Shown in pieces: positions 21,951 through 37,204 of a stretch of 64,000 bases of DNA. The DNA comes from an uncultured Oscillospiraceae bacterium. Lineage in GTDB: Bacteria; Bacillota; Clostridia; Oscillospirales; Oscillospiraceae. Each line of letters starts with the position of its first letter. The first letter of the stretch is position 1. The stretch is from NCBI GenBank assembly GCA_947626345.1, contig CANQSF010000008.1, positions 23,398-87,397 on the forward strand. The letters run 5' to 3'. The notes beneath the pieces are model-generated. The model did no database searches. It was not told where the DNA came from and was given only the letters and a program-made list of their open reading frames with translations. The position numbers and the translations under genes are program-made.

Positions 21951-21970
21951 AAAAAAGAGCATGGCCGGAG
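21951..21970. other. attL: left half of a split terminator plus CCGGAG core
   Basis: AAAAAAGAGCATGGC (21951-21965) is one arm of a terminator whose other arm, GCCATGCTCTTTTTTT, lies at 37189-37204. The CCGGAG at 21965-21970 is repeated at 37184-37189. Joining at this repeat rebuilds a perfect 9-bp stem with a CGGA loop and flanking A6/T7. This marks the left element boundary. Confidence 0.85.
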
Positions 21971-22009
21971 GTGTCATCCAATAAAACAAGTTTAGATTGT
22001 TTTCGGAGT

Positions 22010-22033
22010 GCGGCATGATTTCGGTCATGCCGC
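22010..22033. other. Hairpin overlapping the recombinase stop codon
   Basis: GCGGCATGA (22010-22018) and TCATGCCGC (22025-22033) form a 9-bp stem with a 6-base loop at the end of the recombinase gene. There is no T-run on the minus strand, so it may be a weak terminator or a recombinase-site element. Confidence 0.5.
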
Positions 22034-23671
22034 AGTTCCGTTTATGAGGTCGCTCAAAAGCGAGGCCGGGAGTATCCCAATGTAGTTGTAGCTGATATCC
22101 ACATCCTGCACCCGATGTCCGCTGGACTTGTCCGGCGCATGAACATAGACCGCCTTGACCAGATCGTTCAGGATTGCGGGCGTCAGTTCCGTCAGGCAGA
22201 GGTACTTCTTCACCGTGCGGATGAAACGGTCTACATTGTCCGCCTGATCTTCCTGCTCGGAAATCTCCTTGGTCAGGACAGTGACCTCATCCCGAAGCGC
22301 CGTTTGCTCCTTTTCGTAGTCGTCGGACAGCATTTGAAATCTCGCCTCGCTCAGCCGTCCCGCCACCATATCCTCATAGATCCGCTTGAAAAGCCTGTCA
22401 AGCTCGGCGATACGGTTTTCGGATTTCTGGAGCATTCTCCGCTTGCCAGACAGTTCTTTTCTTGCCTCAGCATCCCGCTTTGCGCCCAGAGCCTTCCGAA
22501 ACGCATCTTCATAGTTGGAGATACAGAATGCCACAAGCTGCAAATGCTTCAGTACGCCTTCTTCGAGAACGACAGCGCGAATAAAATGTGACCCACAGAC
22601 CTCGTTTCCTTTAAGCCTCGATGTGGAACAGATAAAGTGATCCTGCCTTGCCTCAAAGTTTTTGCTTGTGCAGTAGTACAGCTTTTCTCCGCAATCGGCA
22701 CAGCGGACGATGCCGGAAAACATATTGCTTTTTCCTGTTCTCGTCGGGCGGCGTTTGTTCTGGCGTAACTCCTGCACACGGGCAAAGGTATCCTCGTCTA
22801 TGATGGCTTCATGCGTGTTCTCAAACACGACCCATTGCTCCGGTGGGTTCTCAATTTTGCGCTTGTTTTTATACGATTGCCGGTGGGTCTTGAAGTTCAC
22901 CATCCGTCCGAGGTACTCCTGCTTGTCAAGTATGCCGGAGACGGTGCGCGGCGCCCATTGATGCGGATCGTCGGGTGCCTTTGCGGGAGCATTTCTGCCC
23001 TGTTTCATCCAGTGAACGGTGGGACAGTCTACCTTGGCGGCTCTCAGCTTCTTTGCAATCTGAGAGGGGCCATAACCCTCCATACACCATGCGAAGATTT
23101 GCCGAACAACTGCGGCGGCTTCCGGGTCTACGATCCAGTGCTTCTTTGGATTTTCCGGGTCCTTCATGTAGCCGTATGGCGGATTGGTGGTCAGGTATTC
23201 GCCGGACTCGCCCTTCTGTTTCATGGACGCTGTGACTTTACGACTGGAGTCTCTGACATAAAACTCGTTGATTACGTTGAGAAACGGCGTAAAGTCATTC
23301 TCCTGCTGGTTGGCGCTGTCCACGCCGCTGTTTACGGCAATGAAGCGGACGTTGTGCTTCGGCAGAAGGATTTCCGTATAGAAGCCAACTTCCAAATAGT
23401 TCCTTCCTGCCCTCGACATGTCCTTGACAAGCAGGACTCCCACTTTGTCTGCCTCAACAAGTTCCATCATTCTCTGCCAATCGGGTCTTTGAAAATTCGC
23501 CCCGGAGTATCCGTCATCCACAAAATATTCGATATTTCTGAAGCCTTGGTCATGTGCATACCGGGTCAACTGTGCCTTTTGATTGGTTATGCTGTTGCTC
23601 TCACCTGCAAGCTCGTCGTCACGACTGAGTCGGCAGTAGATCGCAGTAATCTTGTCAGACTGCTTTGCCAT
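22025..23671 (-). CDS. Large serine recombinase (integrase/excisionase)
   Basis: A 548-residue site-specific recombinase. The resolvase catalytic domain starts at once: IYCRLSRDDE holds the nucleophilic Ser (about residue 14), followed by FVDDGYSGANFQRPDWQRM and VLLVKDMSRAGRNYLEVG with the catalytic arginines. A recombinase domain (PPYGYMKDP..., WAPRTVSGILDKQEYLG), a zinc ribbon (CADCG ... CSTS ... CGSH) and a C-terminal coiled-coil/DUF4368 part follow. ATG 23671 (MAKQSDK) has AAGGAGA upstream; the longer frame adds an unconserved leader. It very likely integrates and excises the 21971-37189 element. Confidence 0.95.
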   Translation of the reverse strand: MAKQSDKITAIYCRLSRDDELAGESNSITNQKAQLTRYAHDQGFRNIEYFVDDGYSGANFQRPDWQRMMELVEADKVGVLLVKDMSRAGRNYLEVGFYTEILLPKHNVRFIAVNSGVDSANQQENDFTPFLNVINEFYVRDSSRKVTASMKQKGESGEYLTTNPPYGYMKDPENPKKHWIVDPEAAAVVRQIFAWCMEGYGPSQIAKKLRAAKVDCPTVHWMKQGRNAPAKAPDDPHQWAPRTVSGILDKQEYLGRMVNFKTHRQSYKNKRKIENPPEQWVVFENTHEAIIDEDTFARVQELRQNKRRPTRTGKSNMFSGIVRCADCGEKLYYCTSKNFEARQDHFICSTSRLKGNEVCGSHFIRAVVLEEGVLKHLQLVAFCISNYEDAFRKALGAKRDAEARKELSGKRRMLQKSENRIAELDRLFKRIYEDMVAGRLSEARFQMLSDDYEKEQTALRDEVTVLTKEISEQEDQADNVDRFIRTVKKYLCLTELTPAILNDLVKAVYVHAPDKSSGHRVQDVDISYNYIGILPASLLSDLINGTAA

Positions 23672-23751
23672 GTTTTCTTCTCCTTTCGTCGGCGGGCAGT
23701 CTGCCAATACAGGTTCGTGCGAGTCCATTATATCATATTCCACCCTCAGAT

Positions 23752-23970
23752 TCACCTCTTTTCCGATTCTTTTTCAGATTCTTTTGCCATGTGGCAGAGC
23801 AGTTTTTCAGGCAGGCTTTTTGAACCGTCATAGCTGCCGTTGAAGCGGTATGTCGTCCTGCCGGACTCGATGCGGACGGTGACGGATGGGAGAACGGCGG
23901 CAAGATAATTCGGCGCGGTGATCTCACCGTCGGAAGCAATTTTGAAGTTGTAGTTTTTGCTGTTAGCCAT
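23752..23970 (-). CDS. TnpW-like transposon-encoded small protein
   Basis: A 72-residue protein. TVRIESGRTTYRFNGSYDGSKSLPEKLLCHMAKE resembles the TnpW family carried next to serine recombinases on Clostridia elements. Function unknown. It overlaps the end of the mobC-like gene by 8 nt and precedes the recombinase by about 80 bp, so the three are probably one operon. Confidence 0.6.
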   Translation of the reverse strand: MANSKNYNFKIASDGEITAPNYLAAVLPSVTVRIESGRTTYRFNGSYDGSKSLPEKLLCHMAKESEKESEKR

Positions 23971-24349
23971 TGAGCACCTCCCTGTTTTTCTTGGAAATCC
24001 TTGCGGCTTTTCCTTCCCATTTGGTTTCTTCTTTCAAGCGCCCTCTGAGTGCATCGTTTACCTGAGCCATGTCTGCATGAAGCTCTGCGATGTCCTCGGC
24101 ATAGAAATGACTGGTGTTCTTCATGCGAGAGGCAATCTGGTTTATGTTGCTGCCGATTTTGCTCACTGCGGCACACAGCTTCCGCAGCTCGGTGTAGTCC
24201 ACATTGATAATGTAACCGTCGATCAGCATCTTGCGGGCATACGACCCGAAGTTGTGCGTCCCAAGCTCCGCCATCTTGGATTTGATGATCTGCTCCTCCT
24301 GTTCGGTCAGGCAGATTTCCTTACGGATTGGTCTTACTCTGTTTGCCAT
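23963..24349 (-). CDS. MobC-like mobilisation accessory protein
   Basis: A 128-residue protein. The N-terminus (KEICLTEQEEQIIKSKMAELGTHNFGSYARKMLIDG) matches ribbon-helix-helix MobC proteins, and the middle (LCAAVSKIGSNINQIASRMKNT) is the classic MobC signature. MobC proteins open oriT for a relaxase. No relaxase is encoded in this element, so it either helps a relaxase supplied in trans or is a relic. ATG 24349 (MANRVRP) was chosen because the longer frame adds an unrelated leader. The iteron-like array lies directly upstream. Confidence 0.8.
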   Translation of the reverse strand: MANRVRPIRKEICLTEQEEQIIKSKMAELGTHNFGSYARKMLIDGYIINVDYTELRKLCAAVSKIGSNINQIASRMKNTSHFYAEDIAELHADMAQVNDALRGRLKEETKWEGKAARISKKNREVLNG

Positions 24350-36875: not shown

Positions 36876-36948
36876 GGCACGTATCTTGGAGCGTTTGGTG
36901 CGGATAGAACAACAAAAAGGCACTGGAAGTTTAATTTGGAGATGGGGT

Positions 36949-37032
36949 ATGGAAACAAAAGAGTATATGTCATTGGAAGTAGCGGCCGAAAAATGGCATA
37001 GTAAATCTTGGTATGATGTTCAAACGGCTTAA
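36949..37032 (+). pseudogene. Truncated HTH gene (relative of the 25136 gene)
   Basis: A 27-codon frame, METKEYMSLEVAAEKWHSKSW and then a stop, copies the opening of small HTH/excisionase proteins (compare YLSVRQTSERWGIS in the element's own HTH gene) but diverges exactly where the recognition helix should begin. GGGGT precedes it. It is probably the 5' stub of a second HTH gene lost by deletion. Confidence 0.55.
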
Positions 37033-37077
37033 TTCCTTGATTGCAACAAAAAAATGATAACATATCACAAAGAGAGT

Positions 37078-37108
37078 AGCCATACCCGGAAACTTTCCGA
37101 GTATGGCT
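37078..37108 (+). terminator. Hairpin near the right end of the element
   Basis: AGCCATAC plus CGGAAA pairs with TTTCCG plus GTATGGCT with one mismatch, followed by GTTCTCC. It would end transcripts leaving the nuclease module. Otherwise the 36876-37266 stretch holds only the HTH stub, this hairpin, a small CAGTAT/ATACTG dyad (37150-37168), attR and the hydrogenase terminator. Confidence 0.55.
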
Positions 37109-37183
37109 GTTCTCCTTGTTGCACCCCTGTTTGGCAGCTACCCAATGTCAGTATTGTTTTGATACTGTCTTATTGGAAGCTAC

Positions 37184-37204
37184 CCGGAGCCATGCTCTTT
37201 TTTT
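37184..37204. other. attR: CCGGAG core plus right half of the split terminator
   Basis: CCGGAG (37184-37189) followed by GCCATGCTC (37189-37197) and T7 (37198-37204). It complements the left half at 21951-21965. In the uninterrupted chromosome this hairpin would have served both the DUF1002 gene (+) and the hydrogenase operon (-). Confidence 0.85.

What the first reader, a model, noticed from the sequence alone, without database searches (positions are those of the whole stretch)
21951..37204. A 15.2-kb element is inserted in the loop of an intrinsic terminator, with exact boundaries readable
The two flanks each hold one half of a hairpin: AAAAAAGAGCATGGC at 21951-21965 and GCCATGCTCTTTTTTT at 37189-37204. 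A CCGGAG repeat lies at both junctions. Fusing at that repeat rebuilds a perfect bidirectional terminator between the convergent DUF1002 gene and hydrogenase operon. A large serine recombinase sits just inside. Targeting a terminator loop would leave both neighbouring genes intact and may be an evolved preference.
Basis: partly seen in the sequence, partly recalled or inferred. Interest (0 to 1): 0.8.

Follow-up and report, generated by a model that had tools for sequence, protein, structure and literature searches.

The report
Defence island that lands in terminators
A 15-kb DNA insert carrying predicted anti-phage genes splits a terminator-like hairpin exactly at its loop, and about thirty related inserts split other such hairpins the same way, so their recombinase likely uses transcription terminators as landing sites, which would spare the neighbouring genes.

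Summary
The 15,219-bp insert (44% GC against 64% around it) splits a 15-bp terminator hairpin at its loop. Two same-genus genomes keep that hairpin uninterrupted between the same two genes; a third with the gene pair lacks it. Relatives of the recombinase (52-98% identity) have conserved inner ends, but the host DNA outside differs: 59 distinct flanks among 63 junctions. The near host flank has a T-run in 56 of 63, against 11.5% of random positions. Where near and far ends could be paired, the host halves are reverse complements: 26 of 40 reach a 6-letter stem, against 2.9% of mismatched pairs. The two ends share a dinucleotide at the attP centre in 29 of 36 pairs (6.5 expected), and it lies in the loop. 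A second empty site was found for another element. A clade at about 48% identity appears to do the same; five loci with another end type do not. Best reading: a DUF4368-type large serine recombinase that uses intrinsic terminators as its attB, on mobilizable elements that often carry restriction or defence genes. Whether it reads the hairpin or a palindromic sequence motif is open. No excised circle was found.

The parts
21075..21938 (+). DUF1002 gene, left neighbour; its 3' end faces the element
   Evidence: PF06207, E 6e-66
21951..21966 (+). left half of the split terminator (A-tract and 5' arm)
   Evidence: exact reverse complement at 37189-37203; uninterrupted in L010 and L011
21965..21970 (.). 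left junction, CCGGAG; central dinucleotide GG at 21967-21968
21971..21995 (-). left inner end: attP arm, TTATTGGA on the - strand
   Evidence: conserved next to the recombinase in the relatives read
22009..22034 (+). element-borne hairpin with a weak T tail just inside the left end
   Evidence: pattern scan; function untested
22025..23671 (-). large serine recombinase, 548 aa, with DUF4368
   Evidence: Resolvase, Recombinase, Zn_ribbon_recom, DUF4368, all above Pfam cut-offs
23963..24349 (-). MobC/NikA-like mobilization protein
   Evidence: PF21983 and PF05713 above cut-offs
25139..25336 (+). small helix-turn-helix protein
   Evidence: HTH_17, E 0.00029, below the Pfam cut-off
25395..32600 (+). 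[not shown]
   Evidence: Pfam, PADLOC; NCBIfam cut-offs for C, D and E not reached
32627..35398 (+). cytosine-5 methyltransferase, Vsr endonuclease and HNH protein
35503..36875 (+). XRE-type regulator and YhcG/DUF1016 nuclease (PADLOC candidate PDC-S02)
37078..37108 (-). element-borne hairpin just inside the right end
   Evidence: pattern scan, 14 pairs; function untested
37162..37183 (+). right inner end: attP arm, ACTGTCTTATTGGAAGCTACC
   Evidence: same motif at the far ends of relatives
37184..37189 (.). right junction, CCGGAG; central dinucleotide GG at 37186-37187
37189..37204 (+). right half of the split terminator (3' arm and T-run)
37225..37247 (-). second terminator-like hairpin in host DNA, behind the hydrogenase gene
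   Evidence: pattern scan
37267..39039 (-). iron-only hydrogenase gene, right neighbour; its 3' end faces the element
   Evidence: PF02906, E 3.4e-90

Best explanation
The 15.2-kb insert is likely an integrative mobilizable defence island whose DUF4368-type large serine recombinase is predicted to use intrinsic transcription terminators as its bacterial attachment site, with strand exchange inferred at the hairpin loop. Shown: a terminator-like hairpin is split at its loop; relatives of the recombinase sit in many different such hairpins with the same inner ends; the two ends of an element usually share a dinucleotide at the attP centre, and that dinucleotide lies in the loop. Inferred: attP is TTATTGGA-N8-NN-N8-TCCAATAA; the recombinase pairs it with an A-tract / GC stem / loop / GC stem / T-tract site, exchanges strands at a 2-bp centre that matches the loop, and leaves half a terminator at each end. 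Inferred benefit: terminators occur in every genome just past the ends of genes, so landing there spares coding sequence and does not depend on one conserved gene.
For: Two same-genus genomes keep the uninterrupted hairpin; a second empty site exists for the L090 element. Near-end T-run in 56 of 63 junctions against 11.5% of 20,000 random positions. Host halves share a stem of 6 or more letters other than T in 26 of 40 within-genome pairs, against 2.9% of 2,495 mismatched pairs. Shared dinucleotide at the attP centre in 29 of 36 pairs, 6.5 expected. Crossover within 1.5 bp of the hairpin centre in 25 of 26. Reconstructed sites with a stem of at least 6: 31 of 36, against 28 of 632 background sites with the same A/T-tract spacing and 27 of 282 intergenic ones. 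Identical recombinases (L098, L100) sit in different terminator-like sites. Element 43.7% GC, rest of the window 63.6%.
Against: No excised circle or attP joint with an exact pattern (0 of 400 family genomes; 0 viral contigs). One of three relatives with the gene pair lacks the hairpin (L012). Five relatives with another end type sit beside hairpins without a T-run. Five of 36 pairs do not rebuild a stem of 6, and four further pairs were left out. Neighbouring positions in the same register also share letters more than expected (13 against 5.0 and 15 against 3.7), so the crossover is placed only to about 1 bp. The empty-site test for L079 found a relative with its two flanks 1.1 kb apart, not joined, and that for L074 only partial matches. 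No relaxase was identified in the window's element. That the hairpins terminate transcription is predicted, not measured.
Confidence: 0.86

Rival explanations
1. The recombinase reads only a degenerate palindromic sequence (G at +2 and +3 from the core and a T-tract about 11-14 bp out); terminators are hit merely because they carry that sequence, not because of the hairpin.
For: The half-sites share G at +2 (43 of 58), G at +3 (37 of 58) and a T-tract at +11 to +14. Published Cp36, also multi-targeting, has an A-rich / AA / T-rich motif (PMC10083194, passages). Serine integrases in general read sequence in duplex DNA (recalled).
Against: Background sites with the same tracts are rarely hairpins: 27 of 282 intergenic, and 7 of 18 intergenic sites with CC-N4-GG as well, against 31 of 36 (p 6e-22 and 0.001; the stem criteria are not identical).
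Confidence: 0.55
2. Survivorship: the element inserts at many A/T-tract sites, and only insertions that do little harm, those in terminators, are seen.
For: Terminators lie just past gene ends; the nearest gene points at the element in 38 of 50 near flanks and 19 of 19 far flanks. None of the 14 coding CC-N4-GG sites is a hairpin.
Against: Intergenic sites with the same tracts that are not hairpins should survive as well, yet make up 255 of 282 of the intergenic background and 5 of 36 of the reconstructed sites. The crossover sits at the hairpin centre (25 of 26), which harm avoidance does not explain.
Confidence: 0.1
3. The half-hairpins belong to the element as terminal inverted repeats, and nothing in the host was split.
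For: Each element is flanked by inverted repeats, as many transposons are.
Against: The outer halves differ between elements (59 distinct flanks of 63), match each other mainly within one genome, and exist uninterrupted in genomes without the element.
Confidence: 0.02

Closest known systems
DUF4368-bearing multi-targeting large serine recombinases (Cp36, Pc01, Enc9; PMC10083194, passages read)
   Same: Same domain set including DUF4368; many target sites; A-rich 5' side and T-rich 3' side of the target.
   Different: Here the targets are resolved as terminator-like hairpins split at the loop, with variable central dinucleotides. Cp36 is reported with an AA core, and the word terminator does not occur in that paper's main text. 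No direct sequence comparison with Cp36 was made.
TndX/TnpX-type recombinases of Tn5397 and Tn4451
   Same: The multi-targeting clade is reported to include the TndX-like subfamily (PMC10083194).
   Different: Terminator use by them is not something I found or tested; their target preferences are recalled only.
IME_Rho_tet (PMC12904643, abstract and passages read)
   Same: Gut Bacillota mobilizable elements with a serine recombinase, MobC and terminal inverted repeats.
   Different: 116 of 256 reconstructed sites lie in MAFF2 ORFs; terminator does not occur in the text; carries tetracycline resistance rather than restriction genes.
Tn7 and group IIC introns (recalled, not checked)
   Same: Both are associated with terminators.
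   Different: Different enzymes and chemistry: Tn7 enters next to one gene's terminator, group IIC introns enter next to terminator hairpins by retrohoming; neither is a serine recombinase.
Mza anti-phage system
   Same: MzaB, C, D and E homologues in order, next to a cytosine methyltransferase.
   Different: NCBIfam equivalog cut-offs not reached; adjoining Vsr, HNH and YhcG-type nuclease genes.

Membership tests
Large serine recombinase | Resolvase catalytic domain, Recombinase domain and zinc ribbon in one long protein | tested here: met
   All three above Pfam cut-offs in 548 aa
Large serine recombinase | The two ends share a central dinucleotide between symmetric arms | tested here: met
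   29 of 36 pairs, 6.5 expected; adjacent positions also raised, so placed to about 1 bp
DUF4368 multi-targeting clade | DUF4368 domain | tested here: met
   PF14287, E 2.9e-24
DUF4368 multi-targeting clade | Close relatives at many different sites | tested here: met
   59 distinct flanks of 63
DUF4368 multi-targeting clade | Place in a tree with Cp36 or TndX | not tested
   No such sequence was in the tree
Integrative and mobilizable element | Own integrase | tested here: met
Integrative and mobilizable element | Mobilization genes (relaxase and/or accessory protein) | tested here: inconclusive
   MobC/NikA-like protein in the window but no relaxase found; relaxase domains in L090, L055 and L061
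Integrative and mobilizable element | Excision to a circle | tested here: inconclusive
   No attP joint with an exact pattern; genome assemblies would seldom show one
Mza system | MzaB-E homologues together | tested here: met
   PADLOC matches, E 1.3e-92, 7.7e-124, 7e-23, 8.7e-72
Mza system | NCBIfam equivalog cut-offs | tested here: not met
   MzaC 516.9 of 1500, MzaD 118.9 of 420, MzaE 334.7 of 1050 bits
Intrinsic terminator (target) | GC-rich stem of at least 6 followed by a T-run | tested here: met
   Window and two empty relatives; stem in 31 of 36 reconstructed sites, T-run at 56 of 63 near ends
Intrinsic terminator (target) | Actually terminates transcription | not testable with these tools
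   Needs RNA data

The most novel reading that the evidence does not exclude
A clade of large serine recombinases recognises the intrinsic terminator as such, reading the dyad or an extruded DNA hairpin between A/T tracts rather than a fixed sequence, and so gives defence islands a universal, gene-sparing landing site available in any bacterial genome.
Probability: 0.25. Interest if true: 0.92.

Novelty: new variant of a known kind. Interest (0 to 1): 0.8.

Why it matters
Many site-specific elements tie themselves to one conserved gene. Using terminators as a generic attB would explain how these islands insert in many hosts and sites without breaking genes, and why they are found in several Bacillota families. 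It would give a biological meaning to the A-rich/T-rich motif reported for a DUF4368 multi-targeting recombinase, a group being developed as DNA-insertion tools, and predict where such enzymes go. It also gives a rule for finding the exact ends of these defence islands in metagenomes.

Tried and rejected
Element-borne inverted repeats: rejected because flanks differ between elements and two empty sites exist. Chance A/T-tract sites: rejected by the background counts. Two crude ORF-orientation counts were discarded: (29 of 50 near and 12 of 22 far flanks toward the element) was confounded by frames open at the flank edge; (31 of 50 and 15 of 20) got both of the window's own neighbours wrong. 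One search replaced them with a codon model that gets both right. Five apparent perfect pairs (L064, L067, L069, L084, L120) were self-hits of the near end and were removed. Four of the 49 far entries (L132, L135, L165, L178) look like chance motif hits but were kept in the 42-of-49 count. In one search the window's far half was one base out of frame; corrected from then on. Empty-site searches: for L079 the one relative matching both flanks (L203) has them 1.1 kb apart with other sequence between; for L074 only partial matches to one flank. Circular attP: none found. The paper search for Mza names gave 1,260 papers, and the ten listed were unrelated. The promoter scan was at chance level, 26 found against 25.5 expected. 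The one viral contig found (L212) breaks off at the recombinase stop on the held stretch, so its near end could not be read.
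Full report
What is in the window. The insert runs from the CCGGAG at 21965 to the CCGGAG at 37184: 15,219 bp, 43.7% GC inside a window that is otherwise 63.6% GC. The left flank holds an A-tract and the 5' arm of a hairpin, the right flank the 3' arm and a T-run; the 15-nt arm has a single exact reverse complement in 64 kb. Joined, the halves fold at -22.0 kcal/mol (0 of 200 shuffles as good); apart, the junctions fold no better than shuffles. The neighbours are a DUF1002 gene and an iron-only hydrogenase gene, convergent on the site.

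Empty site. DUF1002 was searched in the 35 genomes held for the genus, the window's own included; 29 had a match. Among the fetched loci, which reach 1.5 kb beyond the match, three relatives show the hydrogenase gene next to it. In two of them (L010, L011) the same 15-nt arms are uninterrupted, with TTCCG and GCG between them; in the third (L012) this hairpin is absent and only another terminator-like hairpin remains. So the element most likely entered an existing terminator.

Relatives. A scan of genome contigs kept 80 of 98 confirmed matches, 76 distinct loci. I read the recombinase-side end in 62 of them, which with the window make 63 junctions, and in 13 loci of a clade at about 48% identity; L080 was not read because its match stops before the protein's end. 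In the 63 the inner end is mostly conserved (GTTTTATTGGA and variants), while the host side differs: 59 distinct flanks, and a T-run in 56, against 11.5% of 20,000 random positions in the same loci. The seven without are L058 and L081, with TATTT and CTTTG at that place, and five loci with another end type (L086, L088, L110, L113, L121), which sit beside another hairpin without a T-run.

Far ends. The inner motif of the other end, TTCCAATAAGACAGTAT with up to 2 mismatches, matched in 45 of 49 genomes; these matches include the near-end arm, which is similar. I took 54 loci forward as far-end candidates; after removing five self-hits and repeats, 49 entries in 38 genomes (window included) remained, and 42 of 49 have a T-run. 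Pairing near and far ends within a genome, best match taken, gave 40 pairs: in 26 the host halves share an exact reverse-complement stem with 6 or more letters other than T, against 2.9% of 2,495 pairs from different genomes (32 of 40 against 9.7% at 5 or more). Taking the best of up to three far candidates per genome favours the observed side a little.

The crossover. I used 36 of the 40 pairs; L060, L064, L071 and L124 had no plausible far half and were left out. At the position 8 bp inside TTATTGGA on both sides the two ends share the same dinucleotide in 29 of 36 pairs, 6.5 expected from mismatched pairs; the symmetric positions (6,6), (7,7), (9,9) and (10,10) gave 0, 3, 3 and 1. In the same register, one base to either side, the sharing is also raised (13 against 5.0 and 15 against 3.7), so the shared stretch is often 3-4 letters and the crossover is placed to about 1 bp. 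This suggests attP as TTATTGGA-N8-NN-N8-TCCAATAA. Of the 29, 26 have a stem of at least 6, and in 25 of those the dinucleotide lies within 1.5 bp of the hairpin's centre. The best-scoring dinucleotide differs between elements (TC, TG, CA, AA, AG, CC and others), as expected if only a match between attP and loop is needed. In the window it is GG (CC on the other strand).

Hairpin or sequence? The half-sites share G at +2 (43 of 58), G at +3 (37 of 58) and a T-tract at +11 to +14. Background sites with the same tract spacing are rarely hairpins: 28 of 632 overall and 27 of 282 intergenic, against 31 of 36 reconstructed sites (p 6e-22). Against the stricter CC-N4-GG background (7 of 18 intergenic) p is about 0.001. 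The stem criteria are not identical and the reconstructed segment is longer, so these p values are approximate. The data favour something beyond the short motif but do not prove that a hairpin is read.

Setting. With a codon model that calls both window neighbours correctly, the nearest gene on the recombinase side points at the element in 38 of 50 flanks (one more too short), and on the far side in 19 of 19 (one more too short; only far ends with long flanks, and L127, L132 and L135 set aside). Where both sides were called (20 cases), 12 are convergent, 8 have only the far-side gene ending at the element, and 0 the reverse. This hints at a fixed orientation relative to transcription, on small numbers.

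Second empty site. For the L090 element (Oscillibacter sp. MSJ-31), 2 of 18 genomes searched in its genus matched the far flank, one being the genome itself. The other, G284, has both flanks contiguous (87% and 80% identity) around an intact hairpin with the same stem GCACCGAC/GTCGGTGC and T-run. The same test for L074 gave only partial matches to one flank, and for L079 one relative (L203) with the two flanks 1.1 kb apart and a different hairpin after the far-side gene: neither confirms nor refutes.

Breadth. In a tree of 52 recombinases the 35 rows labelled as relatives of the window's protein lie on one side of a branch with moderate support (78/74), and the 48% clade is firm (100/100); the label was given by group, not by a per-row test. 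In the 48% clade T-runs occur in 11 of 13, and a matching far half was found for L098, L100 and L105, 3 of 13, many of the others having little sequence upstream. Identical recombinases (L098, L100) sit in different sites. Hosts as titled in the records include Oscillospiraceae, Lachnospiraceae (Lacrimispora) and an Erysipelotrichaceae isolate (Holdemania).

Cargo of relatives. Besides the window, parts of eight neighbourhoods were scanned. Restriction or defence homologues were found in L090 (type II methyltransferases, PDC-S01), L055 (type II R-M, OLD-like nuclease), L054 (BnzB, one of three proteins), L094 (type I), L082 (type III) and L052 (GmrSD); none in L061 (seven proteins), and in L065 one hit (C3a214, GlgB, E 3.6e-16, of four proteins) that I do not count as a system. 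With the window that is 7 of 9. In several the far boundary was not fixed, so some genes could lie outside the element.

Literature. Nine searches of the held PMC library showed, in the listings seen, no paper describing a serine recombinase that targets terminators; the phrase search returned no paper. The multi-targeting DUF4368 clade and Cp36's A-rich / AA / T-rich motif are published (PMC10083194, passages); 'terminator' does not occur in its main text. A later engineering paper repeats the DUF4368 link (PMC13137831, one passage). IME_Rho_tet (PMC12904643, outline, abstract and passages) is a different family; its 'Rho' I take to come from its R. hominis reference element. Tn7 and group IIC introns as terminator-linked elements are recalled, not checked. 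Most subscription papers and preprints are not in the library.

What is not shown. Integration, excision and transfer were not observed; no attP joint was found, with an exact pattern, in 400 family genomes or viral contigs. Whether the sites terminate transcription is predicted from sequence. Because the DUF1002 terminator is now split, transcripts may enter the element; a hairpin just inside the left end (22009-22034, weak T tail) might replace it, which is untested.

Noticed in passing
L086, L088, L110, L113, L121: Recombinase relatives (52-64% identity) whose ends lie beside short hairpins of the type GGGGAGCTGG...GACTGAGGGG without a T-run: perhaps a related recombinase that uses a dispersed repeat as target.
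   Followed up: partly
window and relatives, positions 1-8 of the near attP half (table): The core-proximal letters of the recombinase-side attP half vary between elements with nearly identical recombinases, while the far half (GGTAGCT) is nearly fixed.
   Followed up: partly
L054, L055, L082, L090, L094, L052: Related elements carry type I, II, III and IV restriction systems and other defence homologues, as if the cargo were interchangeable.
   Followed up: partly
near and far flanks: Where only one neighbouring gene ends at the element, it is the far-side gene in 8 of 8 cases, which suggests a fixed orientation relative to transcription.
   Followed up: partly
G000: The window's genome encodes 15 matches to this recombinase type (27-100% identity), three of them side by side on contig C20.
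   Followed up: no
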